This document shows positions 2,898-33,431 of a DNA stretch of 48,742 nucleotides, one piece after another. Position 1 is the first letter of the stretch. Every line of letters starts with the position of its first letter. The DNA is from a virus: positions 1 through 48,742 of IMG/VR virus record IMGVR_UViG_3300032562_000046. The stretch is one strand, 5' to 3'. The translations under genes and the position numbers were made by a program. A model generated the notes under the pieces. The model had not been told where the DNA came from and made no database searches. It saw only the letters and a list, made by a program, of their open reading frames with translations.

Positions 2898-2974
2898 TGA
2901 TTCCCTGCTCTCTAGCCTGCCTTATCAGCGCCGGTAGGCTATTTCCGGCGGACCCCCATGGGGGGGTTTCGGCA
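2898..2974. other. Intercistronic hairpins, no gene
   Basis: These 77 bases between two minus-strand genes contain GCCGG...CCGGC (10-nt loop) and a CCCCCATGGGGG palindrome. They may stabilise or punctuate the polycistronic RNA. There is no run of T after either hairpin on the minus strand, so I do not call a terminator. Confidence 0.35.
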
Positions 2975-8301: not shown

Positions 8302-8376
8302 GTGGGAACACGCCGAATGGATCGAGCGGACGGTCTTAAAAACCGTTGTCTCCGGGTTCGACTCCCGGTTCCCACA
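8302..8376 (+). tRNA. tRNA-Leu(TAA), short variable loop
   Basis: The acceptor is GTGGGAA/TTCCCAC, anticodon loop CTTAAAA on an ACGGT/ACCGT stem, T-arm CCGGG/CCCGG. The anticodon is TAA (Leu), yet the variable region is only 5 nt, whereas bacterial tRNA-Leu normally has a long arm. No CCA is encoded. Confidence 0.7.
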
Positions 8377-8377
8377 C

Positions 8378-8451
8378 GAGCGCGTGGCAGAGTGGTCATG
8401 CAGCGGCCTGCAAAGCCGTTTACGGAGGTCCGATTCCTCTCGCGCTCTCCA
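8378..8451 (+). tRNA. tRNA-Cys(GCA)
   Basis: The acceptor is GAGCGCG/CGCGCTC with T73 and encoded CCA. The loop CTGCAAA gives anticodon GCA. U73 is the usual cysteine discriminator. It starts two bases after the preceding tRNA. Confidence 0.85.
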
Positions 8452-8530
8452 ACGTGGGTGCAGATGTGATGCTTGCAAGAAAGCTCACAATTTTACTATT
8501 AACGAGTGGAAGAAAAAACAAAAACGTGGG
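8449..8530 (+). pseudogene. Relic of a Cys-motif endonuclease C-terminus
   Basis: Between tRNA-Cys and tRNA-Leu one frame reads QRGCRCDACKKAHNFTINEW followed by a Lys-rich tail. It matches the RGL-RHCDGCTRANREY motif at the end of the endonuclease-like protein coded at 9866-10465. It has no start and merges into the next tRNA. It is probably what remains of an older endonuclease gene in this array. Confidence 0.45.
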
Positions 8531-8619
8531 CGTGACGGCGAATTGGATCAGCCAGCAGTCTTAGAAACTGCCGTACCCTAAACGGTCACCTGTGGGTTCG
8601 ACCCCCACCACGCCTACCA
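8528..8619 (+). tRNA. tRNA-Leu(TAG)
   Basis: The acceptor is GGGCGTG/CACGCCT with A73 and CCA. The loop CTTAGAA on GCAGT/ACTGC gives anticodon TAG. A full class II variable arm is present. Confidence 0.9.
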
Positions 8620-8626
8620 AAATTGT

Positions 8627-8707
8627 GCCGCACTACGCAAATAGGTAAAGCGGACAGTTTCAAAAACTGTTGATTGTTTGTCAGTTCGATTCTGACGTGC
8701 GGCACCA
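8627..8707 (+). tRNA. tRNA-Leu(CAA), reduced variable arm
   Basis: The acceptor is GCCGCAC/GTGCGGC with A73 and CCA, D-stem CGC/GCG, loop TTCAAAA giving CAA, T-arm GTCAG/CTGAC. The variable region is only 9 nt. Confidence 0.85.
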
Positions 8708-8731
8708 AATACGTCGAAAGATGGGCAGAAA

Positions 8732-8758
8732 ATCGACATGTTTTGGTGATATGTCGAT
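8732..8758. repeat. ATCGACAT/ATGTCGAT inverted repeat
   Basis: A perfect 8-bp inverted repeat with an 11-nt loop lies in the 65-bp gap between tRNA-Leu(CAA) and tRNA-Ser(GCT). It may be a processing hairpin or protein site. Confidence 0.4.
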
Positions 8759-8772
8759 GCAGTAGATATTTT

Positions 8773-8859
8773 GGAGAGTCAACCCGTCAGGGCATGGGCG
8801 CGGTTTGCTAAACCGATGGCTCCTTCGGGAGTGGGGATCAAGACCTCGGCTCTCCGCCA
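8773..8859 (+). tRNA. tRNA-Ser(GCT)
   Basis: The acceptor is GGAGAGT/GCTCTCC with G73 and CCA. The loop TTGCTAA gives GCT. A long variable arm (GGCTCCTTCGGGAG) confirms class II. The T-loop (ATCAAGA) departs from the usual TTC start. Confidence 0.85.
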
Positions 8860-8864
8860 GTTTG

Positions 8865-8950
8865 GGAAGGTAAACCACTGAGGTTGTGGTCTCGCTTGGA
8901 AAGCGATGAGGTCCGTAAGGACTGGTCTTCGAGTGACCTGCCTTCCTCCA
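8865..8950 (+). tRNA. tRNA-Ser(GGA)
   Basis: The acceptor is GGAAGGT/GCCTTCC with T73 and CCA. The loop TTGGAAA gives GGA, and a class II variable arm (GAGGTCCGTAAGGACT) is present. Confidence 0.85.
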
Positions 8951-8951
8951 C

Positions 8952-9038
8952 GGTAGCGTTGGGCATTGCCAAGCCCACCCGCCTCGAAAGCGGACACGGT
9001 GAAAGCCGTTGCGTGTTGGACTCACGCCGCTACCGCCA
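8952..9038 (+). tRNA. tRNA-Ser(CGA)
   Basis: The acceptor is GGTAGCG/CGCTACC with G73 and CCA. The loop CTCGAAA gives CGA, and a class II variable arm (CACGGTGAAAGCCGT) is present. Confidence 0.87.
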
Positions 9039-9043
9039 AGTTT

Positions 9044-9130
9044 GGAGGGTACCGCCGATGCTGAGGCAAACGGTCCTGAACACCGTGGCTCCCGTAAGGG
9101 ATGATGGATGGATACCATTACCCTCCACCA
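9044..9130 (+). tRNA. tRNA-Ser(TGA) with C33
   Basis: The acceptor is GGAGGGT/ACCCTCC with A73 and CCA. The stem ACGGT/ACCGT encloses CCTGAAC, giving TGA with C instead of U at position 33. A class II variable arm is present. Confidence 0.85.
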
Positions 9131-9136
9131 TATTGT

Positions 9137-9227
9137 GCGTTCGCTGGTGAGACGGTGGACACTGTCCGGCTGTAACCCGGAATCCTCTTTGAGGACGCTG
9201 CAGGTTCGAATCCTGCCGAACGCACCA
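9137..9227 (+). tRNA. tRNA-Tyr(GTA)
   Basis: The acceptor is GCGTTCG/CGAACGC with A73 and CCA. The loop CTGTAAC gives GTA; the variable arm ATCCTCTTTGAGGA is long, as in bacterial tRNA-Tyr; the T-arm is GCAGG/CCTGC. Confidence 0.9.
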
Positions 9228-9354
9228 TTGACATCGCAGCCCATCCATGGGAAGATTAACAACATGATGACCAAGACCAAACCGATAACCAGGATGACCA
9301 AGCGGGTCATTTGGGGAGTCGTGTCTTAGGGGTCTGCGTGTTGGCACCACCAGA

Positions 9355-9378
9355 CCTCCACTCAGGTGGGGGTTTTTT
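9355..9378 (+). terminator. Rho-independent terminator inside the plus tRNA array
   Basis: CCTCCAC-TCA-GGTGGGGG is followed by TTTTTT. It sits in the 167-bp gap after tRNA-Tyr, which otherwise shows no supported gene, and may split the array into two transcripts. Confidence 0.7.
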
Positions 9379-9394
9379 AATGCTCTTTGAAAAT

Positions 9395-9465
9395 GCGGGA
9401 CGATCCGAGATCAGGCAGCACTCCAAACGCCGCCGTGCGGAGTTCGACTCTCCGGTCCCGCGCCA
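9395..9465 (+). tRNA. tRNA-Trp(CCA), weak anticodon stem
   Basis: The acceptor is GCGGGAC/GTCCCGC with G73 and CCA; the T-arm CGGAG/CTCCG is perfect. The loop CTCCAAA gives CCA, but its stem has two mismatches and the D-arm is degenerate, so function is less certain. Confidence 0.7.
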
Positions 9466-9470
9466 GACTC

Positions 9471-9543
9471 GCCGCATATCCAAGAGGAACGCTGCCCTCA
9501 TAAAGCAGACGGAGTAGGGGATCGTTTCCCCCGTGCGGCACCA
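9471..9543 (+). tRNA. tRNA-Met(CAT)
   Basis: The acceptor is GCCGCAT/GTGCGGC with A73 and CCA. The loop CTCATAA gives CAT, closed by a C-A mismatch at 31-39. The T-arm has one mismatch. Confidence 0.75.
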
Positions 9544-9547
9544 AGGT

Positions 9548-9649
9548 TGTTGTGCGGGTGAAACGCGGCAGCAGAAGGGCGAGAGCCTGACTAGCGAGTA
9601 ACCGGAATATCCTGCATCTTTTCCGATGTAAGGGCCGGATCGCACAACA
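9548..9649 (+). ncRNA. Unassigned structured RNA in the tRNA array
   Basis: TGTTGTGCG (9548-9556) pairs perfectly with CGCACAACA (9641-9649), enclosing 84 nt with further helices. These are GGC-GAGA-GCC (GNRA tetraloop) and CCGG...CCT...GCATC-TTTTCC-GATGT...AGG...CCGG. There is no TTC-type T-loop, so it is not an ordinary tRNA. It lies between tRNA-Met and an atypical class II tRNA and could be co-transcribed. I do not recognise the class. Confidence 0.5.
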
Positions 9650-9657
9650 GCAGTTTT

Positions 9658-9752
9658 GCCGGAAAGCATAGGTTGCCGCGAGGTCTTATAAGCCTTGTAG
9701 TTGTCGGTAGATTACCGATGCGAGACGGGTTCGATTCCCTCTTCCGGCCCCA
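9658..9752 (+). tRNA. Atypical class II tRNA with TAT anticodon (Ile?)
   Basis: The acceptor is GCCGGAA/TTCCGGC with encoded CCA. The loop CTTATAA on GAGGT/GCCTT gives TAT, an ATA-reading isoleucine anticodon. The variable arm is long (GTCGGTA/TACCGAT), which is unknown for tRNA-Ile, and the D-arm is short. The T-stem holds only three pairs. Identity is uncertain. Confidence 0.55.
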
Positions 9753-9754
9753 GT

Positions 9755-9830
9755 GGATGCGTAGTACAACGGCTAGTATGCACGGCCCTTACCCGTGAAG
9801 ATGAAGGTTCAAATCCTTCCGCATCCACCA
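9755..9830 (+). tRNA. tRNA-Lys(CTT) with C33
   Basis: The acceptor is GGATGCG/CGCATCC with A73 and CCA; the T-arm is GAAGG/CCTTC. The loop CCCTTAC on CACGG/CCGTG gives CTT with C33 in place of U33. Confidence 0.85.
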
Positions 9831-9859
9831 TTGACACGTAGGCAAGATTATTTTAAGTT
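9831..9859 (+). promoter_or_regulatory. Leaderless-type promoter of the 9866 endonuclease gene
   Basis: TTGACA (9831-9836), a 17-bp spacer and TAAGTT (9854-9859) end 6 bp before ATG 9866. No Shine-Dalgarno is present, so transcription would begin at or next to the start codon. Confidence 0.6.
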
Positions 9860-9865
9860 TAAGAC

Positions 9866-10465
9866 ATGATTGCCTACAAAAGCCCGGAGATTCATCGCAC
9901 CCCTCTTTATCGAGCAAAAGCAGCGTATTATGGGATGTTGAAAAGGTGTCTTAATAAAGATGGGAAGAACCCCTCTTACGCGAATGTGGAATTACGAATG
10001 ACGTGGGATGAATGGCTGAAATGGGCCATCCCTGAATACGAGAAGTTTCAAAAAGAGAATCCTGACGTTACACCTAACGCGGCAAGGATTGGCGATTCTG
10101 GTCACTACGAACTTGGAAACATAAGGATTGTTTCACAGATGCAGAATTGCGCGGAACAATCCGGCAGGTACAGAAACGCTCTCCAAGAAGACGGGACAAA
10201 ACGATGCTCAACCTGCAAAAAGCCTCAGCCAGTTGCGATGTTCAGCAAGAACAAAAGCCGTTGGGATGGTTTAGCATCTGACTGCAAGGATTGCGTTCGT
10301 AAATATCAAAAGAAGAACAACGGTGGTCCGAGAAAACTGCTTGAAATTCAGCACGGAACAAGGTCGGGATACTTAGCAGAAGCTCGTCGCGGTCTTCGGC
10401 ATTGCGATGGTTGTACAAGAGCAAACAGAGAATATACCAAGAATTTACGAGAGACGGTCGCCTAG
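9866..10465 (+). CDS. HNH-type homing endonuclease-like protein overlapping tRNA-Lys
   Basis: The 199-residue protein starts at ATG 9866, right after a leaderless-type promoter. Residues 15-95 match the phage endonuclease-like module with YRAKAAYYGMLKRCLNK, a short NPSYAN turn, WDEWLKW and G-HYELGNIRIVSQMQN. Residues 113-148 form a zinc knuckle (CSTC...CKDC). Residues 162-190 carry the HGTRSGY...RGLRHCDGC motif common in phage DNA-binding proteins. The final codons and the TAG stop lie inside tRNA-Lys(TTT), overlapping it by 15 bp. It is less GC-rich than most structural genes, fitting a mobile gene. Cleavage activity is inferred. Confidence 0.75.
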   Translation: MIAYKSPEIHRTPLYRAKAAYYGMLKRCLNKDGKNPSYANVELRMTWDEWLKWAIPEYEKFQKENPDVTPNAARIGDSGHYELGNIRIVSQMQNCAEQSGRYRNALQEDGTKRCSTCKKPQPVAMFSKNKSRWDGLASDCKDCVRKYQKKNNGGPRKLLEIQHGTRSGYLAEARRGLRHCDGCTRANREYTKNLRETVA

Positions 10466-10529
10466 TCTGGTTCGGCAACGACCTTTTAAGTCGTCATAAA
10501 CGTGAGTTCAAATCTCACCCGTCTCACCA
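10451..10529 (+). tRNA. tRNA-Lys(TTT)
   Basis: The acceptor is GAGACGG/CCGTCTC with A73 and CCA. The loop CTTTTAA on ACGAC/GTCGT gives TTT; the T-arm is GTGAG/CTCAC. Its first 15 bases are also the end of the upstream endonuclease gene. Confidence 0.92.
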
Positions 10530-10531
10530 AT

Positions 10532-10606
10532 GGACCTATAGCTCAAAGGGATAGAGCCTCGCCTTCTAAGCGAATGATTCCCGTTCGATCCGGGATAGGT
10601 CTTCCA
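10532..10606 (+). tRNA. tRNA-Arg(TCT)
   Basis: The acceptor is GGACCTA/TAGGTCT with T73 and CCA. The D-stem is GCTC/GAGC; the loop CTTCTAA gives TCT; the T-arm is TCCCG/CGGGA. Confidence 0.9.
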
Positions 10607-10623
10607 TTAGGATCACCAGATTT

Positions 10624-10700
10624 GGTCGCATAGCTCAGACGGATAGAGCGATGGTTTCCTAAACCGTAGGCCGGAAGTTCGACTCTTCCTGCGACCACCA
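10624..10700 (+). tRNA. tRNA-Arg(CCT)
   Basis: The acceptor is GGTCGCA/TGCGACC with A73 and CCA. The D-stem is GCTC/GAGC; the loop TTCCTAA on ATGGT/ACCGT gives CCT. Confidence 0.9.
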
Positions 10701-10704
10701 GTTT

Positions 10705-10781
10705 GCTGCCGTACCGGGTCGCCCTCCGAAGGCGAACACCGTAGGTGGATAAGGCAGGTTCGAGTCCTGTCGGCAGCTCCA
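10705..10781 (+). tRNA. D-arm-deficient tRNA with CCG anticodon (Arg)
   Basis: The acceptor is GCTGCCG/CGGCAGC with T73 and CCA; the T-arm is GCAGG/CCTGT. A perfect anticodon arm TCGCC-CTCCGAA-GGCGA gives CCG. Only seven bases (TACCGGG) separate acceptor and anticodon arm, so no D-arm can form. The variable region instead has a CACC/GGTG hairpin. Confidence 0.65.
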
Positions 10782-10854
10782 GTTGCTTTGTATCTTGGGC
10801 GTGTTCCGGTTTTTTGATGTATACGCCTAAGTTATAAGTTGTTTAGGGTATTTT

Positions 10855-10930
10855 GCGGAGTTTGATCAGCGGCTAGATCGTCTGCCTTACAAGCAGGTCG
10901 TCGGGGGTTCGAGTCCCTCACTCCGCACCA
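10855..10930 (+). tRNA. tRNA-Val(TAC)
   Basis: The acceptor is GCGGAGT/ACTCCGC with A73 and CCA. The loop CTTACAA gives TAC; the T-arm is GGGGG/CCCTC. The 73 bp before it hold no supported gene. Confidence 0.9.
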
Positions 10931-10934
10931 GGTT

Positions 10935-11548
10935 TGCCGGATTAGCTCACCGATGGCTTAGAGCGTTCGGTATACAGGAGTAATGTGTTATATGATTGTA
11001 GCGTAGATAAATTTGGAATAGGATTCCATCGATAATGGAAAGGTTGTGAGTTCGATGATTAACGCGACAACAAAAATTAACACCAAGCAGACAGGCGACA
11101 TATCTGAGATGAGGTTTGCTCTATGGTGTGTTGAACAAGGATTAGCGGTATCTGTTCCACTTGGAGACCGCCACCGCTACGATATGATCGTAGACACTGG
11201 AAAACGACTGCTACGAGTGCAGGTAAAAACAACATGGCGTAATAATGGTAAGACATTCTCGGTATCATTTGTAAATAATACAACTGACCACGGAAAAGTT
11301 GTTCATCGTAGCTACGAAAATCAAGTAGATGCACTCGTAGCTTACGAACCGAATGATCGGAAGTTCTATCTATTCGGACCAGATTTATTGAGACAATTGA
11401 AAAGGGATATTGCCTTGAGATTCAAGCCGTCAGCCAACAATCAAGTGCGAGGAGTTAGATTGGCATCAGACTATGAATTAAAATCGGTTGATCAATTGGA
11501 TACGATATAAGCGAGAGGTAGCTGGTTCAAGCCCAGCATCCGGCACCA
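10935..11548 (+). tRNA. Split tRNA locus interrupted by a PD-(D/E)XK gene
   Basis: The 5' part (10935-10980) has acceptor GCCGGAT, TA, D-arm GCTC/GAGC and TTCGG of an anticodon stem. The 3' part (11511-11548) has CGAG, AGGTA, T-arm GCTGG/CCAGC, acceptor ATCCGGC and ACCA. The acceptor halves pair perfectly. Between them lies a second tRNA fragment (11024-11057) with anticodon arm TTCCA-TCGATAA-TGGAA (GAT, Ile, C33) and half a T-arm, then the endonuclease frame. The mature anticodon cannot be reconstructed. No group I intron core was found. Confidence 0.6.
11055..11510 (+). CDS. PD-(D/E)XK homing endonuclease-like protein inside a tRNA locus
   Basis: The start is ATG 11055, or GTG 11046, nine bases earlier and in frame; both fall in a T-arm-like segment. 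The 151-residue protein has the order expected of the I-Ssp6803I-like group of intron-associated PD-(D/E)XK nucleases. TKQTGDISEMRFALWCVEQG (with the early Glu) is followed by SVPLGDRHRYDMIVD (catalytic Asp) and RLLRVQVKT (Q-x-K motif). A C-terminal basic part follows. I-Ssp6803I itself lives in an intron of a cyanobacterial tRNA gene, which matches this position. The TAA stop abuts the 3' half of the tRNA. DNA cleavage is inferred. Confidence 0.78.
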   Translation: MINATTKINTKQTGDISEMRFALWCVEQGLAVSVPLGDRHRYDMIVDTGKRLLRVQVKTTWRNNGKTFSVSFVNNTTDHGKVVHRSYENQVDALVAYEPNDRKFYLFGPDLLRQLKRDIALRFKPSANNQVRGVRLASDYELKSVDQLDTI

Positions 11549-11553
11549 AATTT

Positions 11554-11627
11554 GCGGCCGTCGTCCAATGATAGGGCCTCGGACTTCCAATCCGATGACG
11601 GGAGTTTGAATCTCCTCGGCCGCTCCA
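11554..11627 (+). tRNA. tRNA-Gly(TCC)
   Basis: The acceptor is GCGGCCG/CGGCCGC with T73 and CCA. The loop CTTCCAA on TCGGA/TCCGA gives TCC. It is the last tRNA of the plus-strand array. Confidence 0.9.
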
Positions 11628-11651: not shown

Positions 11652-11984
11652 TTAGATCCCATTCAAAATCTCGACCTTGATGTTTTCTGGCCTCATAGCC
11701 TCATCAACGGCCCGGTCAACGCTCTTCATGAGGCCCATGCGGCGCATAGTTTCAGCCCTGTGCCAAGCCTTAAACTGAGGGGTCTCGGCGCATTTGCGGA
11801 AGGCTTCTTCCTTATTCTTCCGCTGATCGCGTCCGTCGCGGTGTTCGGCCCTGGCCCCAGAGGCTGTATGGATACACCGCACACCGTTTTGCTTTGCGTT
11901 GCGGTGTTGGCCGCCGTTGCCGCCAGTGCAAAAAGTCTGAAACTCGAAATCTTTTGAAGTAAGGGAAAACAAGAGGGTTTTCAT
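11652..11984 (-). CDS. GGQ-domain release-factor-like protein
   Basis: The start is ATG 11984, three bases after the stop of the upstream 60-residue gene. The 110-residue product is a single RF-1-type domain with GGNGGQHRNAKQNGVRCIH (residues 21-39), including the GGQ tripeptide that enters the peptidyl-transferase centre. An ArfB-like tail (RDQRKNKEEAFRKCAETPQF) follows. There is no codon-recognition domain, so it resembles ArfB/YaeJ-type peptidyl-tRNA hydrolases, which free stalled ribosomes, rather than RF1/RF2. It lies between the two tRNA arrays near the phage tmRNA. Function is inferred from the motif. Confidence 0.8.
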   Translation of the reverse strand: MKTLLFSLTSKDFEFQTFCTGGNGGQHRNAKQNGVRCIHTASGARAEHRDGRDQRKNKEEAFRKCAETPQFKAWHRAETMRRMGLMKSVDRAVDEAMRPENIKVEILNGI

Positions 11985-11986
11985 TT

Positions 11987-12169
11987 TTATGCTTTGACTG
12001 GCCGGAGAGGAACAACCGATACCGTCCACCCAAACTCGCCGGTGGATTTGTCTTTTCCGGCATAGCGTTTGGCCTTGATGGCGTATTTGGGATAAAAAAG
12101 AATCTTGCCGTTCTTGATCTGATCAGCTACCTCGATTGCGGCGACGATGTGACTCCTTGCAACCTTCAC
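11987..12169 (-). CDS. Small basic protein of unknown function (60 aa)
   Basis: GTG 12169 follows a strong Shine-Dalgarno (GAGGAGGAATC). The product begins with a short helix (MKVARSHIVAAIEVADQIKN) and continues as a basic, beta-rich stretch (KAKRYAGKDKSTGEFGWTVSV). No motif is recognised. Three bases separate its stop from the GGQ-domain gene, so the two are probably translated together and may act in the same process. Confidence 0.75.
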   Translation of the reverse strand: MKVARSHIVAAIEVADQIKNGKILFYPKYAIKAKRYAGKDKSTGEFGWTVSVVPLRPVKA

Positions 12170-12187: not shown

Positions 12188-12265
12188 TGGCGAGATGGAC
12201 GGGAGTCGAACCCGCGTAGCACGGTGTGAAAGACCGTGGGCCAAACCGACGCAGCCTGCCATCTC
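12188..12265 (-). tRNA. tRNA-Glu(TTC)
   Basis: The acceptor is GAGATGG/CCATCTC with G73 and CCA. The loop CTTTCAC on ACGGT/ACCGT gives TTC; the T-arm is GCGGG/CCCGT. Confidence 0.92.
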
Positions 12266-12298
12266 AAAACAAATGGGACTTATATACTTGAGTCCCTT

Positions 12299-12772
12299 TC
12301 ACAGTTTCGGCTCCAAAATGAAAGCTGCAATATGCCTTCCAGTACCTTTGCCGATGGACATGTCCTCAGTTGCAAGCCATCGAACGTCGCCAAGGTTTCG
12401 GACTTTAGTCCCGATAGCCTTGAGCATCATGAGCACCCATTTATCGACGGGGTAGACAAGCACAACGAGGTTCCCTTTTTGCTGCTCTTCAATGGACTTA
12501 CGGACCCAAGCGGTCGGACCTTTCTTCTTGCCTTGATGAATGATGGACCCAAACGGCGGATTGACGTAATTAGACTTACCCCATTCGCAAGTGAGGCCGT
12601 CAAAGCCTACCGGAAGCGGGAAGGGGCATGGGTCAAAATCGAAGTGAAACTCTGTGTCCAGCGCCGAATAGAGATCAGGCGGAGTGATCCAGTAATGTTT
12701 TCCATCTTCGCTATTGCCGACGTGAAACTTGTTCTCGGCTGGCATCAACTGACTTTGATGAACGATGCTCAT
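12299..12772 (-). CDS. Phage DNA N6-adenine methyltransferase (Dam-like)
   Basis: ATG 12772 has Shine-Dalgarno GGAGGGTAA. The 157 residues match the small phage DNA N6-adenine methyltransferase family: YWITPPDLYSALDTEFHFDFDPCP (27-50), then GLTCEWGKSNYVNPPFG (59-75), where NPPF is the catalytic D/N-PP-Y/F motif. A hydrophobic strand (NLVVLVYPVDKWVL) follows. It transfers a methyl group from S-adenosylmethionine to adenine N6, which can protect phage DNA from host restriction. It sits among the minus-strand tRNAs. Confidence 0.88.
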   Translation of the reverse strand: MSIVHQSQLMPAENKFHVGNSEDGKHYWITPPDLYSALDTEFHFDFDPCPFPLPVGFDGLTCEWGKSNYVNPPFGSIIHQGKKKGPTAWVRKSIEEQQKGNLVVLVYPVDKWVLMMLKAIGTKVRNLGDVRWLATEDMSIGKGTGRHIAAFILEPKL

Positions 12773-12819
12773 TTACCCTCCAAGGGAGTTAAGTACGTAA
12801 TTCCCAAACAAATGCAACT

Positions 12820-12896
12820 TGGTAGCCCTGGCGGGATTCGAACCCGTCATTTCCGGAGTGAGAGTCCAGTTGCCTATCCACTTAGCAGACAGGGCC
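12820..12896 (-). tRNA. tRNA-Glu(CTC)
   Basis: The acceptor is GGCCCTG/CAGGGCT with A73 and CCA. The loop CTCTCAC on CTGGA/TCCGG gives CTC; the T-arm is ACGGG/CCCGC with one weak pair. Confidence 0.88.
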
Positions 12897-12902
12897 AAAA
12901 CC

Positions 12903-13215
12903 TTGCCGGGTGTTTTTTTACATGGAACCCGGCCGTCCACGGGTTACCGTTGTTTAGGCGGCAACCGGGAGCGCAAATGCTGCTGCACTTATGGTTTGAT
13001 TCTCGTTGCGGTGAGCATCAATCCCGGCATGAAACTGTAGATCCCTGATCCCGTCGAAACCGTGACGGGCCCACAAGAGAGGGTTGACATTAACCGCTCA
13101 CTTTTTCCAAGGGGGTAAGTCCTAAAGCAGCTTCCAACCCTCTCTGGTGGACCCGGTGGGAATTGAACCCGCGTCCGAAACCACATCCCTACAGCGTTGA
13201 CATGCTTAACCCTTG
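12903..13215 (-). ncRNA. ssrA: Circularly permuted two-piece tmRNA
   Basis: Read on the minus strand, the acceptor piece comes first (about 13215-13145): GGGTTAAGCATG, CTGTAG (13194-13189), TTTCGGACGCGGGTTCAATTC and CGGGTCC-ACCA. Next comes an intervening loop closed by GAGAGGGTTG/CAACCCTCTC (13144-13135 with 13086-13077). The coding piece starts with GGGCCCG (13072-13066), which pairs with the acceptor CGGGTCC, then CGGTTTCGACGGG and CTACAG (13040-13035), which pairs with CTGTAG. The tag frame ends NENQTISAAAFALPVAA-stop (13007-12954). This order and these pairings define the permuted tmRNA class. The outer ends of both pieces, and the resume codon, are approximate. Confidence 0.88.
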
Positions 13216-13391
13216 CGGCGGTTTGCGTTGCGCCCATGGGGAACATGGCGGCCCCTGGAAGTTTTGTTGGCGTAGTTTTTGCGCCGCTTCCCGGGTGGCC
13301 CATCCTTGGGGCGCATCGCGCAATAAAGGCAACCGATGGAACATGGCTTTCCGAGCCCACGACGGTGCCTTGAAGCGTGTGCATTGCCCAT
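13206..13391 (-). CDS. Small basic Cys-containing protein (61 aa)
   Basis: ATG 13391 has a strong Shine-Dalgarno (AAAGGAG) located in the loop of a 9-bp hairpin. The product is very basic with a CSIGCLYC cluster (residues 18-25) and a C-terminal run of Arg, Lys and Gly (KRRKNYANKTSRGRHVPHGR). This suits nucleic-acid binding. Its last codons overlap the 5' end of the permuted tmRNA. I cannot name a family. Confidence 0.6.
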   Translation of the reverse strand: MGNAHASRHRRGLGKPCSIGCLYCAMRPKDGPPGKRRKNYANKTSRGRHVPHGRNANRRKG

Positions 13392-13422
13392 GACAAGTCT
13401 CCTTTCACTATGTACTTGTCAT
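13390..13422 (-). promoter_or_regulatory. Hairpin enclosing a Shine-Dalgarno and start codon
   Basis: ATGACAAGT (13422-13414) and ACTTGTCAT (13398-13390) are perfect complements around a 15-nt loop that contains AAAGGAG. The right arm includes the ATG of the 61-residue gene. Upstream an 11-codon frame (MIHAEDAMTST, with GGAGGAACA in front) ends inside the left arm, as in a translational leader. Confidence 0.5.
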
Positions 13423-13520
13423 GGCATCCTCCGCGTGAATCATTGTTCCTCCAAAACTTGTGCCCACTTTGTCCCCTCCGGTGGGCGCGGAGGAAAGGAG
13501 GCCTACACCAGCCCGGACAT

Positions 13521-13594
13521 TGGCGGACCATGCGAGACTCGAACTCGCTCTGTTCGGTAGACAGCCGAACATCATACCCATAGAACAATGGTCC
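13521..13594 (-). tRNA. tRNA-Asp(GTC)
   Basis: The acceptor is GGACCAT/ATGGTCC with G73 and CCA. The loop CTGTCTA on TTCGG/CCGAA gives GTC; the T-arm is GCGAG/CTCGC. Confidence 0.9.
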
Positions 13595-13599
13595 AAACT

Positions 13600-13676
13600 T
13601 GGTTGCGGATCCGGACCCCGACTCCGGCGATATTCAGCTTATGAGGCTGACGAGACTCCCTTTCTCCATATCCGCT
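13600..13676 (-). tRNA. tRNA-Met(CAT), unpaired 1-72
   Basis: Six acceptor pairs GCGGAT/ATCCGC are flanked by an A-A opposition at 1-72, then A73 and CCA. The loop CTCATAA on TCAGC/GCTGA gives CAT; the T-stem is CCGGA/TCCGG. An unpaired 1-72 is an initiator trait, but the three G-C pairs of an initiator anticodon stem are absent. The T-loop is atypical (GTCGGGG). Confidence 0.7.
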
Positions 13677-13730
13677 GGAGACAAGTATAACGCCGGTCTG
13701 GGGGAAGATTGCAAGAGAACTTTGGTAACC

Positions 13731-13806
13731 TGGGGCACCTGGCAGGATTCGAACCCGCGTCTTCCTGTTTCGAATACAGGAGCATAATCCACTCTGCCAC
13801 AGGTGC
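13731..13806 (-). tRNA. tRNA-Arg(TCG)
   Basis: The acceptor is GCACCTG/CAGGTGC with C73 and CCA. The loop ATTCGAA on CCTGT/ACAGG gives TCG. Confidence 0.9.
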
Positions 13807-13812
13807 GAAGTA

Positions 13813-13889
13813 TGGTGGGGCTGGCAAGGTTCGAACTTGCTGCCTCCGGTTCCGCAAACCGGCGCTCTATCCAGATGAGCTACAGCCCC
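13813..13889 (-). tRNA. tRNA-Arg(GCG)
   Basis: The acceptor is GGGGCTG/CAGCCCC with A73 and CCA. The D-stem is GCTC/GAGC; the loop TTGCGGA on CCGGT/ACCGG gives GCG. Confidence 0.9.
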
Positions 13890-13893
13890 TCAA

Positions 13894-13970
13894 TGGTCCG
13901 CGTGATCAGATTCGAACTGATGACCCCCTGATCCCAAATCAGGTGCGCTTCCTGGCTGCGCCACACACGG
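13894..13970 (-). tRNA. tRNA-Pro(TGG)
   Basis: The acceptor is CCGTGTG/CACGCGG with A73 and CCA. The loop TTTGGGA on CCTGA/TCAGG gives TGG; the T-arm is ATCAG/CTGAT. Confidence 0.9.
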
Positions 13971-13976
13971 TTAAGC

Positions 13977-14053
13977 TGGTCCGGACCCGGCGAGTTGAAC
14001 GCCGCTCATCCTGTTCCCGAAACAGGTGCCTGAAGCCGCTAGGCTAGGCCCGG
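13977..14053 (-). tRNA. tRNA-Pro(CGG)
   Basis: The acceptor is CCGGGCC/GGTCCGG with A73 and CCA. The loop TTCGGGA on CCTGT/ACAGG gives CGG; the T-arm is CGGCG/CGCCG. Confidence 0.9.
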
Positions 14054-14061
14054 ATAAACTA

Positions 14062-14136
14062 TGGTGGACTCGACTGGACTTGAACCAGCACCGCACACGG
14101 CTTCAACGTGTCGCTCTACATTGGAGCTACGAGTCC
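14062..14136 (-). tRNA. tRNA-Phe(GAA)
   Basis: The acceptor is GGACTCG/CGAGTCC with A73 and CCA. The loop TTGAAGC on ACACG/CGTGT gives GAA. Its first 21 bases are also the end of the upstream endonuclease gene. Confidence 0.92.
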
Positions 14137-15120
14137 ATGAACTTTCAAACGCTTCGCAATCGCACTAAATGATACCCCTAGCCGTTTTGCAACTTGATTT
14201 CGGTTACTTAAACCAATCATATCGATCAACTGTTCATTTGTCGGCCATTGAATCTTATACTTCGCACTCTTCAATCCAGCACATCTTGCACAGCGCGGAG
14301 CATTATTTGTTACGGCAGTGCCACAATCACAACATCTGTATTCTGGCGGTTGTTGATAAGCAGCAGAAACGAAATCAGTACCAAACCTTTCAACCGCATA
14401 TAACAAATACGGCTTTATTTCTTTTTCGCCTAAAACCGTTAATCCTTCAACTGCTGCTATCTTTGCATTGTTGCGTCGGTCAAAATACCCCTTGACTTCG
14501 ACTAGGTTTCCAGCACCCAAAAGAAAGTCTGGATAAAACTTGGATCGCTTACCCTCAAACTCATATTCATAACCAAGCGTATTTCTGCTGAAAGAAATTG
14601 AATGATCGATAGCGTGTATTACCCAAGCCAACTCCCAAGACGAATCACACCAAAATCCTTGATACCACCCACTTTTACCACGTCCAGCCCCCTTTCTTGG
14701 GCCACCTTTAGTCGGACTTTTTCTCCTTCCAATTTCAGATCGCTTCTTGCGGTCCTCATCGGTCATGTTGGCAACGTATCGCCTTACTCCTTCACTGACA
14801 TTGGCACAGGCTCTCGCTATCCTTTCGTCCGTTTCCTTTGTCAGACCTCTGTTCCAAGATTTCCCTTTTGCTGGCCCAGTGCCTAACGGTCTTCCAGCAT
14901 AATCGCCACGATGAGCAATCCTCCAGTGAGTTGCAGCGCCATATTTGCTGCACTTCTTACCGCAATCTGGACAAATCTTCTTGCCGTCTACATCGGTCTC
15001 GAAAATCACTGTTTTCCTGCGGCGGGCAGGTCCAAAACCATCGCACAGACGTTCATGCGTCTTGATACGATTCATCCCTATTTCTGTCCCACATTTACTA
15101 CATGGTATAGTTCTGAACAT
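14116..15120 (-). CDS. PD-(D/E)XK homing endonuclease-like protein overlapping tRNA-Phe
   Basis: The start is ATG 15120, six bases after a perfect TATAAT box and without Shine-Dalgarno. The 334-residue protein has an N-terminal zinc knuckle (PCSKCG, about 6-11) and a second one (CPDCGKKC, 50-57). It then has the nuclease core, FWCDSSWELAWVIHAID (157-172), GYEYEFEG, PDF (197-199) and LVEVKGYF (206-213), the PD...E-x-K signature. A third Cys cluster (CCDCG...CARC) and an HTH-like C-terminus (NRNQVAKRLGVSFSAIAKRL) complete it. The last seven residues and the stop are coded by tRNA-Phe. AT-richness fits a mobile gene. Confidence 0.8.
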   Translation of the reverse strand: MFRTIPCSKCGTEIGMNRIKTHERLCDGFGPARRRKTVIFETDVDGKKICPDCGKKCSKYGAATHWRIAHRGDYAGRPLGTGPAKGKSWNRGLTKETDERIARACANVSEGVRRYVANMTDEDRKKRSEIGRRKSPTKGGPRKGAGRGKSGWYQGFWCDSSWELAWVIHAIDHSISFSRNTLGYEYEFEGKRSKFYPDFLLGAGNLVEVKGYFDRRNNAKIAAVEGLTVLGEKEIKPYLLYAVERFGTDFVSAAYQQPPEYRCCDCGTAVTNNAPRCARCAGLKSAKYKIQWPTNEQLIDMIGLSNRNQVAKRLGVSFSAIAKRLKVHGLVAPM

Positions 15121-15126
15121 GCAAGC

Positions 15127-15132
15127 ATTATA
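15127..15132 (-). promoter_or_regulatory. Leaderless-type -10 box of the 15120 endonuclease gene
   Basis: On the minus strand TATAAT is followed by GCTTGC and then the ATG at 15120. A -35 box at the usual distance is poor. The spacing matches other leaderless starts in this genome. Confidence 0.5.
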
Positions 15133-15182
15133 CCATTAAAATCAAACCACTGCTATGACCGCACTAGCTCAATCGGCAAAAC

Positions 15183-15258
15183 TGGTGGACCCTGTCGGCT
15201 TCGATCCGACCGCCTCCTCGGTGCAAACGAGGCGCTCTCCCAAATGAGCTAAGGGCCC
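15183..15258 (-). tRNA. tRNA-Ala(TGC)
   Basis: The acceptor is GGGCCCT/AGGGTCC with A73 and CCA. The D-stem is GCTC/GAGC; the loop TTTGCAC on CCTCG/CGAGG gives TGC. Confidence 0.9.
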
Positions 15259-15265
15259 GCGTAAA

Positions 15266-15345
15266 TGGGGTGGCCGGTGGAAATCGAATCCACAAGAGAC
15301 ATGTTCCACAGACATGCCCGACATACCAATAGTCGGCACGGCCAC
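15266..15345 (-). tRNA. tRNA-His(GTG)
   Basis: The acceptor is GTGGCCG/CGGCCAC with C73, typical for histidine, and CCA. The loop CTGTGGA on CATGT/ACATG gives GTG. Confidence 0.88.
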
Positions 15346-15348
15346 ACT

Positions 15349-15423
15349 TGGAGCCCTGCTGCCGAGTCTAACGGCATTGTCCGGGGTACAGGCCCGGTGC
15401 ATCGACGGCAATGCTTGCAGGGC
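15349..15423 (-). tRNA. tRNA-Thr(TGT) with C33
   Basis: The acceptor is GCCCTGC/GCAGGGC with T73 and CCA. The stem CCGGG/CCCGG encloses CCTGTAC, giving TGT with C33. The T-loop does not have the usual TTC start. Confidence 0.85.
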
Positions 15424-15429
15424 AAAAAC

Positions 15430-16194
15430 TTACATTAAAAACCTTGGAGCCGAAATGGGGCCTCGAACCCCAGTCGTATCATTACCGATGATATGCTCTT
15501 CCTGTTGAGCTATTCCGGCATCCTTTTTGCGCCTCATTCCGTTAACGTCTCTTCCATTGCCCCGATTAAGCGACATGTATGTCGGAGTTAAAGAATGGCA
15601 ATTAGGGCACAAAACGATCAAATTGCTTTCACTGCAATTGCGAAAATCCCCGTCGATATGCTCGATCTGAACCGGCACCTTTCCACTTTTATGGTTAACC
15701 TCGCACCATCCACACCTAGAGCACTTGTTGTCGTATTTCCCAAGAAGGTACCGTCTTACGGTTTCACAAAGAAAGCCATTCTTTGTTAACCCACTACGCG
15801 CTCCGGATCGCCATTCTACGAGCACCGCTTTCTCTTTGTTTTTCTGATTGCATCCATGGCTACAAAATTTTTTGTTCGAGTGCTTTACTCCACACTCAAG
15901 GCACTTTTTCTTCTTGTTAGCCTTGAGGGGGTTGTTGAATAACGCAGAACACCTGTGAGAACAAAAAATCTTGCGGCAATCTTTTCCGCACTGCTTGCAA
16001 GGCTTTGGCTTATTCCTCCTCTGTGAATCATTTGAGCAAAGAGGAGAGCAGTACGTTTTTCCTGTTCCGCGTTTTGCTCTCCTCATCGCCTCGTGCTTCG
16101 GTAACCAGAAAATCCTGTCGCAAAAATCGCAACGTAAGTCGATAAGGTCGCGACTGCGAGCGGAATTAAACTGCTGCTTTGATACGAGTCTCAT
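15430..16194 (-). CDS. HNH homing endonuclease whose frame runs through tRNA-Thr
   Basis: The start is ATG 16194, seven bases after TACGAT and without Shine-Dalgarno. The 254-residue protein is packed with zinc knuckles in its first half: CDFC (22-25), CSPLC, CKQCGKDC, CSHRC, CLECG and CSHGC. The HNH core is CSRCGWCEVNH (158-168) and QIEHIDGDFRNCSESNLIVLCPNCH (176-200). From about residue 225 the sequence is simply the translation of the entire tRNA-Thr(GGT) gene, which lies wholly inside the frame. The functional protein may end before this tail. The AT-rich composition suggests recent arrival. Confidence 0.8.
   Translation of the reverse strand: MRLVSKQQFNSARSRDLIDLRCDFCDRIFWLPKHEAMRRAKRGTGKTYCSPLCSNDSQRRNKPKPCKQCGKDCRKIFCSHRCSALFNNPLKANKKKKCLECGVKHSNKKFCSHGCNQKNKEKAVLVEWRSGARSGLTKNGFLCETVRRYLLGKYDNKCSRCGWCEVNHKSGKVPVQIEHIDGDFRNCSESNLIVLCPNCHSLTPTYMSLNRGNGRDVNGMRRKKDAGIAQQEEHIIGNDTTGVRGPISAPRFLM
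15445..15519 (-). tRNA. tRNA-Thr(GGT) with C33, inside an HNH reading frame
   Basis: The acceptor is GCCGGAA/TTTCGGC with T73 and CCA. The D-stem is GCTC/GAGC; the loop TCGGTAA on TATCA/TGATA gives GGT with C33; the T-arm is TGGGG/CCCCA. The whole tRNA gene is also read as codons of the HNH gene. Confidence 0.9.
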
Positions 16195-16214
16195 AAATTA
16201 AATCGTATCATAGT

Positions 16215-16288
16215 TGGAGCCGGGTAGGCGATTCAAACGCCTGCTTGCGGGGTACGGACCCGCCGTTATGTCACTAAACCAACCCGGC
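16215..16288 (-). tRNA. tRNA-Thr(CGT) with C33
   Basis: The acceptor is GCCGGGT/ACCCGGC with T73 and CCA. The stem GCGGG/CCCGC encloses TCCGTAC, giving CGT with C33; the T-arm is AGGCG/CGCCT. Confidence 0.88.
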
Positions 16289-16294
16289 AAAACC

Positions 16295-16370
16295 TGGAGC
16301 GGACGACCGGCAATGATCCGGCAACCTTCGCGCTGGCAGCGCAATGCTCTACCAATTGAGCTACGTCCGC
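16295..16370 (-). tRNA. tRNA-Gly(GCC)
   Basis: The acceptor is GCGGACG/CGTCCGC with T73 and CCA. The D-stem is GCTC/GAGC; the loop CTGCCAG on TTGCG/CGCGA gives GCC. The T-loop is unusual (ATCATTG). Confidence 0.87.
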
Positions 16371-16371
16371 A

Positions 16372-16445
16372 TGGCAGCGGGAACAGGAATTGAACCTGTC
16401 TTACTGGTGCCAAAGGCCAGTGCCTAACCAATCGGCCATCCCGCT
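16372..16445 (-). tRNA. tRNA-Gln(TTG)
   Basis: The acceptor is AGCGGGA/TCCCGCT with G73 and CCA. The loop CTTTGGC gives TTG, closed by a C-A mismatch at 31-39. Confidence 0.85.
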
Positions 16446-16451
16446 ATAACT

Positions 16452-16526
16452 TGGCTGCGCGTGGAGGTTTTGATCCCCCTACTGATGGTTCAGAGCCATC
16501 TGTGATTCCAATTTCACCAACGCGCA
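16452..16526 (-). tRNA. tRNA-Gln(CTG)
   Basis: The acceptor is TGCGCGT/ACGCGCA with G73 and CCA. The loop CTCTGAA on GATGG/CCATC gives CTG. Confidence 0.88.
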
Positions 16527-16539
16527 ACATACTTCTAAA

Positions 16540-16612
16540 GGCTCACGGGGAGGGATTCGAACCCACACCTTTTCCGTTAACAGCGGAATGCTCGCCATAG
16601 AGCTTCCCGTGA
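16540..16612 (-). tRNA. tRNA-Asn(GTT), inside an HNH reading frame
   Basis: The acceptor is TCACGGG/CCCGTGA with G73; only CC, not CCA, is encoded. The D-stem is GCTC/GAGC; the loop CTGTTAA on TTCCG/CGGAA gives GTT. All but the last three bases are also codons of the HNH gene, whose TGA stop is in the acceptor stem. Confidence 0.88.
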
Positions 16613-29473: not shown

Positions 29474-30124
29474 TTAGACTCCGAATGGGGTTGTAAATGC
29501 TTCGTGCCCCGGCTCTCCGCCCCACTTGCGGATGTAGTAGTCCCTGTAGAGCATGAAGGTTGCATTGTTCTTCAGTTTTATGGCTGGATCGCTGTTGATG
29601 GTCTGGCTTCCGGGGTGGTTCACCTGAAGACCAGTGTCAATGCACTCGTATCCAGCCAGACGAACCCTCCGATAGAAGTCGTTGTCGCAAAAATACTGCC
29701 AAAAGGTTGTGTCCCACTCGACGCCTGCCGACAGTAAATCTGTGTTGATAGCCGACAGCGTGTCGTAGTGGGTCCACAGGACTCCCCACTTTCTGCCTTG
29801 AAGGTTGGACTGACGCGCGATCTTGAGAAGCTCTTCGCATACGCCTGGGTGGGGCTCGGCGTCGTTGTGCATCCAGATGCAGATGTTTGCTCCCTGTTCT
29901 TGTGTCGTCCTCATGATGTAGTTGAAGGTTTGGGGGCATGAAAGGGGAACCAGGGGGCGAAGAACGTAGACTCCATGCCAGTGCATCCAGGTGTCTGTTG
30001 GCAGGCCTTCTGGGGAGTTGTCAATAATGATACGGTTTGAACCGTAGGCTTCAGATGACCTTACGGCCGTATCGAGAAGGTCGGGACGGTTAAGGTATGG
30101 AATCCACATCTTGTAATCGCTCAC
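29474..30124 (-). CDS. GT-A fold glycosyltransferase (family 2-like)
   Basis: GTG 30124 overlaps the upstream methyltransferase stop (GTGA). The 216 residues begin with a GT-A start (MWIPYLNRPDLLDTAVRS). The N-terminal strand IIIDNSPEGLP is followed by the metal motif WMHNDAEPHPG (DxE/DxD-like, about 83-93). The acceptor-side motif FCDNDFYRRVRLAGYE (about 145-160) comes later. The fold transfers a sugar from a nucleotide donor to an acceptor. It is the last gene of the coupled operon. The substrate is unknown. Confidence 0.82.
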   Translation of the reverse strand: MSDYKMWIPYLNRPDLLDTAVRSSEAYGSNRIIIDNSPEGLPTDTWMHWHGVYVLRPLVPLSCPQTFNYIMRTTQEQGANICIWMHNDAEPHPGVCEELLKIARQSNLQGRKWGVLWTHYDTLSAINTDLLSAGVEWDTTFWQYFCDNDFYRRVRLAGYECIDTGLQVNHPGSQTINSDPAIKLKNNATFMLYRDYYIRKWGGEPGHEAFTTPFGV

Positions 30125-30654
30125 TCTTCCTCCGTAGTCCAGATTGAATCGATAATGCGAAACTTGGGTACCAGCTCATCCACCGCCTGCTTGACTCCAT
30201 CCCAAGGCGGGGCTCCGTAATCGTGTCCGCAGAGGATTCCTCCGGGGCGAAGTTTGGGTCTCCATGCCAGGATGTCGTCTCTCACTCCTTCATAGGTGTG
30301 ATACCCATCGATGAAGATCAGGTCGGCGGTGATGTCTGGAAAGGATGCGGCGATATCTGCCGATGGCCCCTTGCAGATGATGATATTTGCCGCGCATGAG
30401 GTGTATTTTCTGAATTCTCCAAGGAGCCAGTCCGGATCCTTGTCTGCCAAAAAGTCGCCCTGCTGTTCGGTTCCTTGCCATGTATCCACGGCATAGATTG
30501 TTCCGGCGGTATTGCAGGCCAGGGCCAGGGTGCTGCGTCCCATCCACGACCCTACTTCAACGATGGTTGAGGATTTGGATGCGGCATGGGCAAGGTACTC
30601 CAGGTCCCTTTCCCCCATCCATCCGGGTGTTGCGAGGGCTTTCTCAATGTTCAT
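30121..30654 (-). CDS. SAM-dependent methyltransferase (class I)
   Basis: ATG 30654 overlaps the radical SAM stop (ATGA). Residues 30-45 hold motif I (VEVGSWMGRSTLAL) for S-adenosylmethionine, then TIYAVDTWQG (acidic residue for the ribose). Later LIFIDGYHTYEGVRDDILAW (112-131) and LRPGGILCGHDYG (133-145) follow the Methyltransf_24 family pattern. Members commonly methylate sugars or other small groups in polysaccharide pathways. Together with two glycosyltransferases a sugar substrate is likely. Confidence 0.88.
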   Translation of the reverse strand: MNIEKALATPGWMGERDLEYLAHAASKSSTIVEVGSWMGRSTLALACNTAGTIYAVDTWQGTEQQGDFLADKDPDWLLGEFRKYTSCAANIIICKGPSADIAASFPDITADLIFIDGYHTYEGVRDDILAWRPKLRPGGILCGHDYGAPPWDGVKQAVDELVPKFRIIDSIWTTEEE

Positions 30655-33232: not shown

Positions 33233-33306
33233 GTCTCCTCCGCAAGAACATTTTACTCTGGCGCAGAACGGGTCGAGGAAAAAAGATGTCAATTTGGACG
33301 TATCTC

Positions 33307-33334: not shown

Positions 33335-33344
33335 TAAATCAACT

Positions 33345-33372: not shown

Positions 33373-33431
33373 TGTTCGTGGAGACGGGCACGTTAAAAAC
33401 GCCGATCCTTTCACGAAAGGAGTACATCCAT

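What the first reader, a model, noticed from the sequence alone, without database searches (positions are those of the whole stretch)
12903..13215. Phage-encoded circularly permuted (two-piece) tmRNA
Seen: on the minus strand the tRNA-like 3' part (TTTCGGACGCGGGTTCAATTC...CGGGTCC-ACCA) precedes the 5' part (GGGCCCG...GGTTTCGACGGG) and the tag frame. The two are joined by a loop with a perfect 10-bp GAGAGGGTTG/CAACCCTCTC stem. GGGCCCG pairs with CGGGTCC, and CTACAG pairs with CTGTAG. Known: this order is the permuted tmRNA of Alphaproteobacteria, Cyanobacteria and some Betaproteobacteria, cut into two RNAs. Inference: the phage supplies its own trans-translation RNA with tag ending FALPVAA, which may redirect stalled host or phage proteins. 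Phage tmRNAs are known; permuted ones are, as far as I recall, rare. No SmpB gene is visible in this window.
Basis: partly seen in the sequence, partly recalled or inferred. Interest (0 to 1): 0.9.

Follow-up and report, generated by a model that had tools for sequence, protein, structure and literature searches.

The report
Phage two-piece tmRNA, acidobacterial type
This phage carries its own ribosome-rescue RNA (tmRNA) in the rare rearranged, two-piece form, and it resembles the one-piece RNA of Acidobacteriota soil bacteria more than the known two-piece RNAs, so the rearrangement may have happened once more, in phages.

Summary
On the minus strand at about 12897-13245 lies a complete circularly permuted tmRNA gene (Rfam RF04321, 89.4 bits, cut-off 47; ARAGORN tag AAAFALPVAA), among 28 tRNAs. 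In nine family members the helices joining the two pieces show compensatory changes. No smpB was found in the window or in an 83-kb contig of the same phage.

Permuted tmRNAs in phages are already published. The lineage is what is new. The gene belongs to a phage family (15 viral contigs share its pseudoknot-1 motif) that matches the one-piece tmRNA of Terriglobia (Acidobacteriota) in linker and helix-2 letters; other permuted tmRNAs sampled here hardly ever do. A tree test marginally rejects grouping with other viral permuted rows (p-AU 0.045). Isolated Acidobacteriota phages Tunturi_3, 4 and 5 carry unannotated permuted tmRNAs, while 343 of 396 sampled Acidobacteriota genomes carry the one-piece form and none of the 11 permuted calls there held up. 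An independent permutation is the favoured reading, not proven. An RF-1-domain GGQ gene lies 0.9 kb away.

The parts
13145..13205 (-). 3' piece (acceptor RNA): helix-2 3' strands, TTTCGGAC, T arm, acceptor 3' strand CGGGTCC with encoded CCA
   Evidence: sequence; RF04321 alignment; covariation
13073..13144 (-). 72-nt intervening segment, hairpin with 11-bp stem, expected to be removed (inference)
   Evidence: fold (z -3.98 for 13061-13152); a stem that starts directly after CCA and ends 4 nt before G1 also in 5 other family members (the L074 stem, 7 bp, is within chance)
12897..13072 (-). 5' piece (coding RNA): acceptor 5' strand GGGCCCG, D-loop equivalent, helix-2 5' strands, pseudoknot 1, tag frame, post-tag hairpin; its 3' end is not known
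12996..13026 (-). pseudoknot 1 (CGG/CCG and TTGAT/ATCAA)
   Evidence: 95.6-100% of cells paired, no both-sided change, so no covariation support
12954..12986 (-). tag reading frame, AAAFALPVAA + stop
   Evidence: ARAGORN; RF04321 match ends at this stop codon; similar C-termini in relatives
12905..12933 (-). post-tag hairpin GCCGGGT/ACCCGGC
   Evidence: the segment folds no better than shuffles (z -0.49), weak
12820..12896 (-). tRNA-Glu(CTC), starting 57 nt after the tag's stop codon; its 5' processing could set the 3' end of the coding piece (inference)
11652..12029 (-). RF-1-domain protein with GGNGGQ, catalytic domain only (likely start near 11984); second putative ribosome-rescue gene
   Evidence: PF00472 43.1 bits (cut-off 35); phrog_3122 1.4e-20; alignment; fold
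12188..16612 (-). stretch with the 16 minus-strand tRNAs among which the tmRNA lies (12 more tRNAs are on the plus strand, 8302-11627)

Best explanation
It is a working phage-encoded two-piece tmRNA. The gene is read with the neighbouring tRNAs, and tRNA-processing enzymes cut out the intervening hairpin; the two RNAs stay together through the acceptor stem and helix 2. Alanine is loaded through G3-U70, host SmpB delivers it to ribosomes stalled on broken mRNA, the ribosome resumes on GCA and adds (A)AAAFALPVAA, and a host protease removes the product. Shown here: anatomy, covariation between the two pieces, no phage SmpB in the sequence held. Inferred: transcription, processing, charging, SmpB use, tagging. 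Its ancestor was most likely a one-piece tmRNA of an Acidobacteriota host that became permuted separately from the alpha, beta and cyanobacterial lineages. The neighbouring GGQ protein would be a second, tag-free way to release peptides from stalled ribosomes (inference).
For: RF04321 full-length 89.4 bits and ARAGORN. Covariation in 9 distinct family sequences: 10 of 31 pairs change on both sides, 27 such cells against a shuffled mean of 8.2, 0 of 500 shuffles as high; 7 of these 10 pairs join the two pieces; sliding the partners lowers paired cells from 98.6% to 34-42% (shuffles ignore relatedness, and the structure was drawn from these sequences). No complete tRNA overlaps the T-arm piece, unlike 10 of the 11 permuted calls in bacteria. 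Lineage: each of 11 family rows has its highest MEAN identity with the 11 Terriglobia one-piece rows; family plus Terriglobia held as a clade gives lnL 1.19 higher (p-AU 0.546), family plus viral permuted rows and DLP_6/QDWS359 45.5 lower (p-AU 0.045). Linker TCAC/TCCC/TCCA: family 9 of 11, Terriglobia 10 of 11, other Acidobacteriota 0 of 10, other one-piece 0 of 23, other permuted 2 of 120; TGCCGG: 10/11, 10/11, 0/10, 0/23, 1/120; 3' GCA[TC]G: 10/11, 11/11, 1/10, 6/23, 2/120. ARAGORN tags AEPYALPMAA (L341) and ATAEPFALPMAA (L342) against AEPQFALAA in 6 of 11 Terriglobia rows. Host link: RF-1 protein 73.8% to Tunturi_4 and 66.0% to Tunturi_3.
Against: No RNA data. The careful tree leaves the family in an unresolved fork with one-piece tmRNAs of several groups, not joined to Terriglobia; p-AU 0.045 is marginal; groups and motifs were chosen after seeing sequences; only about 180 columns. 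The single best match of L342 is a viral permuted row (0.603 against 0.577 for Terriglobia). L385 (tag AKDEPFALPMAA) fell elsewhere. Tunturi_4 has the 3' motif but neither the linker nor TGCCGG and moved away from the family. Rfam's beta model still matches over its full length, below cut-off. The host of this phage is only inferred: terminase and major head protein are about 24% and 23% identical to Tunturi_1. SmpB absence rests on contigs whose completeness is not given.
Confidence: 0.72

Rival explanations
1. The gene is a real two-piece tmRNA but was taken from a known permuted lineage (beta-like), and its Terriglobia-like features came later by adaptation to the host ribosome or by gene conversion with host tmRNA.
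For: Best of the clan in the region scan is beta, over 1-331 of 331, 56.7 bits; other phages carry clearly beta-like ones, e.g. DLP_6 at 103.7 bits; L342's single best match is a viral permuted row.
Against: Below the beta cut-off of 84; tree test p-AU 0.045 against grouping with viral permuted rows and DLP_6/QDWS359; shared linker, helix 2 and, in two members, AEP in the tag with Terriglobia.
Confidence: 0.2
2. An unsampled Acidobacteriota clade has a permuted chromosomal tmRNA and the phages copied it, so the rearrangement is bacterial and not viral.
For: 50 of 396 sampled genomes gave no one-piece match at 1e-15, and the genomes shown had only 5 candidates scored each.
Against: None of 396 gave a permuted gene that held up; the 11 flagged lie on a one-piece tmRNA, on a tRNA-Asp beside one, or both.
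Confidence: 0.15
3. It is a decoy that ties up host SmpB and stops host trans-translation, as proposed for the tRNA-like-only RNA of mycobacteriophage DS6A.
For: Such an RNA inhibits tmRNA in E. coli, as told in PMC11915505 and PMC4131195 (passages).
Against: Here pseudoknot 1 and an open tag frame with a stop codon are kept in the family members read.
Confidence: 0.08
4. False call: the T arm of an ordinary tRNA beside a one-piece tmRNA imitates a permuted gene.
For: This produced RF04321 calls in Acidobacteriota.
Against: No tRNA overlaps the T-arm piece; acceptor and helix-2 strands covary between the pieces; no one-piece tmRNA is called in the window at cut-off.
Confidence: 0.01

Closest known systems
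Two-piece tmRNAs of marine phages (Melnitz and others, PMC9004378; passages read)
   Same: Phage-encoded permuted ssrA with tag; no phage smpB in the passages seen
   Different: Those are said to follow alpha, cyanobacterial and gamma lineages; this one is closest to Acidobacteriota one-piece tmRNA and lies among tRNA genes
RF04321 tmRNA_permuted and RF01849/RF01850/RF01851 (PMC11915505; passages and section 12 part 1 read)
   Same: Same order of pieces, tRNA-like domain, resume context; RF04321 passed at 89.4 bits
   Different: No clade-specific cut-off is reached (alpha 37.3/50, beta 56.7/84, cyanobacterial not listed); own pseudoknot-1 and helix-2 sequence
One-piece tmRNA of Terriglobia, e.g. 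strain X5P2 (L300)
   Same: Linker TCAC, GCATG helix 2, TGCCGG, TAAGTGC before the tag
   Different: Order of pieces; the host gene is one RNA
Permuted tmRNAs found here in isolates Tunturi_3, Tunturi_4, Tunturi_5
   Same: Permuted, acceptor strands pair, Acidobacteriota hosts
   Different: Longer tags (33 aa in Tunturi_4 by ARAGORN; about 30 in Tunturi_3 and 34 in Tunturi_5 by my reading of the frame); Tunturi_4 joins the family (83) but not; Tunturi_3 was left out of later trees as a long branch, Tunturi_5 was not in the trees
Mycobacteriophages Alice and Nanosmite
   Same: tmRNA plus RF-1-domain gene in one phage
   Different: Their tmRNA is the one-piece form (RF00023 77.1 and 111.5 bits)

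Membership tests
Permuted tmRNA (RF04321) | Curated score of 47 bits over the whole model | tested here: met
   89.4 bits, 1-213 of 213
Permuted tmRNA (RF04321) | 3' acceptor piece precedes 5' piece and both pair | tested here: met
   acceptor 100% and helix 2 98-100% of cells paired with both-sided changes in 9 sequences
Permuted tmRNA (RF04321) | Transcript cut into two RNAs | not testable with these tools
   needs RNA from infected cells
tmRNA in general | G3-U70, CCA end, resume codon and tag with stop | tested here: met
   (G-U in 9 of 9), tag
tmRNA in general | Alanylation, SmpB binding, tagging | not testable with these tools
   experiment
Betaproteobacterial permuted lineage (RF01850) | 84-bit cut-off | tested here: not met
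   56.7 bits
Alphaproteobacterial permuted lineage (RF01849) | 50-bit cut-off | tested here: not met
   37.3 bits
Cyanobacterial permuted lineage (RF01851) | Curated cut-off | tested here: not met
   not among matches at gathering score; its own score was not shown, since keeps only the best of the clan
Terriglobia tmRNA lineage | Shared linker, helix-2 and TGCCGG letters | tested here: met
   motifs chosen after seeing the sequences
Terriglobia tmRNA lineage | Joined to Terriglobia in a tree | tested here: inconclusive
   open fork; held clade not rejected, lnL 1.19 higher
ArfB/YaeJ rescue factor (for the RF-1-domain protein) | GGQ catalytic domain without codon-recognition domains | tested here: met
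   125 aa, GGQ invariant in 19 aligned rows
ArfB/YaeJ rescue factor (for the RF-1-domain protein) | Closest to ArfB, with long basic C-terminal tail | tested here: not met
   the 35 PDB sequence hits are named RF1, RF2, PrfH (factor H) or mitochondrial RF1 types, none ArfB; tail short and not strongly basic by eye

The most novel reading that the evidence does not exclude
A further, independent origin of the two-piece tmRNA: phages of Acidobacteriota took the one-piece tmRNA of their hosts and permuted it, and now bring a two-piece tmRNA into cells that use a one-piece tmRNA, in some phages together with a GGQ release protein.
Probability: 0.55. Interest if true: 0.72.

Novelty: new variant of a known kind. 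Interest (0 to 1): 0.6.

Why it matters
[quoted passage not shown] A phage family that looks derived from a one-piece host gene would let one ask directly why and how a gene becomes permuted, with the one-piece relative still present in the host. It would also show one SmpB serving two tmRNA architectures in the same cell, testable in cultured pairs (Tunturi phages and Tunturiibacter). It also adds tmRNA genes that are missing from the annotated stretches of three isolated phages.

Tried and rejected
Close relatives among named phages by DNA: in the 20 of 108 records listed only the T-arm part matched; window 24000-48742 has no near match, the portal none by tblastn. A functional coupling of RF-1-domain gene and permuted tmRNA: 10 of 30 RF-1-bearing records have a full-length or near full-length permuted match (8 over cut-off, 2 below at 42.5 bits; one of the 30 is the window's own population, and G017/G018 and G024/G025 are pairs of alike sequence), but only 1 of 40 long viral contigs chosen for a permuted tmRNA has an RF-1 domain. 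From the coordinates the two genes touch only in Tunturi_4 (4 nt between the matches) and are near in the window (0.9 kb); Tunturi_3 has 5.4 kb between them. So shared phage lineage, not a fixed operon. RF-1 protein in 396 Acidobacteriota genomes: none at 1e-12, with no positive control. Permuted tmRNA in Acidobacteriota: 11 of 396 over cut-off, all rejected: 10 overlap a one-piece tmRNA called by ARAGORN, and 10 have a tRNA-Asp where the 3' piece should be. One-piece tmRNA on plasmids as outgroup: no match. Acceptor pairing imposed GGG/TCC, so only the inner 4 bp count (4 of 4 in 12 sequences; cross-pairs mean 2.26, 12 of 126 with 4 of 4). In some bacterial artefacts the upstream tRNA strand also pairs 6-7 of 7, so acceptor pairing alone does not prove a permuted gene.

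One search lost L030 (no acceptor), L344 and L349 (tag start not found), L057_std and L085 (length); L343 and Tunturi_5 had no row. One search left out G007, G024, Tunturi_3, L085, L112, L310, L396, L400, L401, L373; one search kept every third of the ordinary viral permuted rows and left out L331, L332, L119, L429, L381, L369, L374, L420, L408, L382. One search used the set. One search used 9 family sequences; L343, L344 and L349 were not aligned.

Full report
What is there. The window is a virus record of 48,742 bp, 54% G+C, with phage replication, terminase, portal and head proteins. Its completeness is not given. ARAGORN finds 28 tRNAs and one permuted tmRNA, tag AAAFALPVAA. RF04321 matches 12954-13205 on the minus strand at 89.4 bits over the full model. 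In a search confined to the region, the beta permuted model matches full length but below cut-off, 56.7 against 84; alpha gives 37.3 against 50.

Structure. The acceptor stem is 7 of 7 with G3-U70. Helix 2 consists of CTACAG/CTGTAG and CATGC/GCATG, each strand on a different piece. The intervening hairpin, folded with the acceptor ends, is better than 200 shuffles, z -3.98. The whole RNA 12897-13237 has z -3.07. The post-tag segment is not better than shuffles.

Relatives. A 24-base pattern from pseudoknot 1 found 15 viral contigs; L346 among them lies on contig 3300032677_000017 (83,019 bp), whose L123 stretch is 99.99% identical to the window over 20,375 nt, so it is the same population. A further pattern gave L370, L406 and L427 (identical tmRNAs, tag AVPFELPMAA) and L386 (AEDNALPMAA), which lack the exact motif; L370 and L386 join the family in the tree. 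L385 (AKDEPFALPMAA) does not. ARAGORN tags in the family end LPVAA, LPMAA, LQMAA or PVLA; L344 and L349 by frame end LMAA and RLAA. In 9 distinct sequences 98.6% of cells pair, 10 of 31 pairs change on both sides, 0 of 500 shuffles reach the covariation score and 8 of 500 the number of further pair types; with slid partners 34-42% pair. The intervening stem starts directly after CCA and ends 4 nt before G1 in six members of unrelated sequence (window, L037, L074, L341, L342, L348), of which L074 is within chance; L075, L343 and L344 do not show it, and L345 has only 3 nt there.

Lineage. Pieces were put in one order and compared with one-piece Acidobacteriota tmRNAs, that of E. coli, one-piece tmRNAs from viral contigs and permuted tmRNAs from viral contigs. 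The first, quick tree, in which the only one-piece row from elsewhere was of a mycobacteriophage, put the family and Tunturi_4 with the 22 Acidobacteriota one-piece rows (95). With other one-piece rows added, the family (99/94 with L370 and L386) stays with the one-piece rows (83/94) but its exact neighbour is unresolved, Tunturi_4 moves elsewhere, and the bootstrap had not settled. Mean identity of each of the 11 family rows is highest to the 11 Terriglobia rows, 0.54-0.63; by best single row L342 is closer to a viral permuted tmRNA. Held-clade tests: with Terriglobia lnL +1.19, p-AU 0.546; with viral permuted rows and DLP_6/QDWS359 lnL -45.5, p-AU 0.045. Motif counts, chosen after looking, separate family plus Terriglobia from the rest; the few carriers among other permuted rows are L356, L402, L382 and L040. 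Terriglobia tags read AEPQFALAA in 6 of the 11 rows; L341 reads AEPYALPMAA and L342 ATAEPFALPMAA.

Hosts. Ten of ten named Acidobacteriota genomes have a one-piece tmRNA at 160-198 bits. One is Edaphobacter lichenicola X5P2, which I take from the strain code to be Tunturiibacter psychrotolerans X5P2, isolation host of Tunturi_1 to 3. Of 396 sampled Acidobacteriota 343 are over cut-off for the one-piece form. RF04321 rings over cut-off in 11 of 396, all explained by a one-piece tmRNA, a tRNA-Asp beside one, or both; Caulobacter as control rings. In contrast three of four Tunturi isolates tested carry a permuted tmRNA over cut-off: Tunturi_3 63.3, Tunturi_4 79.2, Tunturi_5 86.4 bits, Tunturi_1 none; Tunturi_2 was not tested. 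None is annotated in the record stretches seen, and the main text of the isolate paper PMC11924767 has no occurrence of 'tmRNA' (passages and section 18 seen). DLP_6, QDWS359 and PHB04 also carry permuted tmRNAs, unannotated in the stretch seen for DLP_6.

SmpB (PF01668) was found in 0 of 38 phage records, while 10 of 14 control genomes ring, so host SmpB must serve if the RNA works (inference).

Second rescue gene. ORF 11652-12029 (-) is an RF-1-domain protein with GGNGGQ, strongly conserved in 19 aligned sequences, the window included. AlphaFold2 gives mean pLDDT 78 and pTM 0.58; the best Foldseek hits are RF1, RF2 and mitochondrial RF1 types at TM-scores of about 0.4, with C12orf65 at rank 38 and ICT1 at rank 47. 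It has no codon-recognition domain, so a codon-independent hydrolase is likely, but not specifically ArfB. Mycobacteriophages Alice and Nanosmite also combine RF-1 and a tmRNA, there one-piece; WXIN has RF-1 and neither form.

Novelty. Phage two-piece tmRNAs are in print (PMC9004378, passages: 402 of 18,146 phage genomes with tmRNA, 53 of 133 unique structures two-piece, 50 of them marine or aquatic). PMC11915505 lists 79 bacteriophage tmRNAs and speaks of three main permuted clades, while also naming permuted genes in archaeal MAGs; its supplementary tables could not be read. Searches for phage or two-piece tmRNA, tmRNA with Acidobacteria and phage, soil viruses, tag peptide or independent permutation showed nothing on this lineage in the rows listed (searches list only part of their hits; open-licence papers only, seen as listings). 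I therefore call it a new variant of a known kind.

Noticed in passing
window 2911-2974 (-): Type II hammerhead ribozyme match, RF02276, 41.9 bits against a cut-off of 37.
   Followed up: no
window 11652-12029 (-): RF-1-domain GGQ protein of a conserved phage subfamily: relatives in 28 viral contigs (window population included) and in 196 phage records, 193 of them Mycobacterium and two Tunturiibacter phages.
   Followed up: partly
L161 (Tunturi_4), L162 (Tunturi_3), L327 (Tunturi_5): Unannotated permuted tmRNAs in three isolated Acidobacteriota phages with tags of about 30 residues; in Tunturi_4 the match begins 4 nt after the RF-1 gene.
   Followed up: partly
L304-L314: RF04321 gives false permuted calls where tRNA-Asp lies just upstream of a one-piece tmRNA; a trap for genome annotation.
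   Followed up: yes
L345, L370, L385: Permuted tmRNAs whose two pieces are only 3-6 nt apart, so almost nothing would be cut out.
   Followed up: no
window 29474-33427 (-): Inverted block between portal and major head genes with radical SAM and glycosyltransferase genes.
   Followed up: no
L328 2838-3215: GOLLD RNA (192 bits) beside tRNA and tmRNA genes in mycobacteriophage Nanosmite.
   Followed up: no
L382, L402, L408, L420: Permuted tmRNAs in viral contigs whose tags end AAAGR or AAAA instead of a usual LAA end.
   Followed up: no
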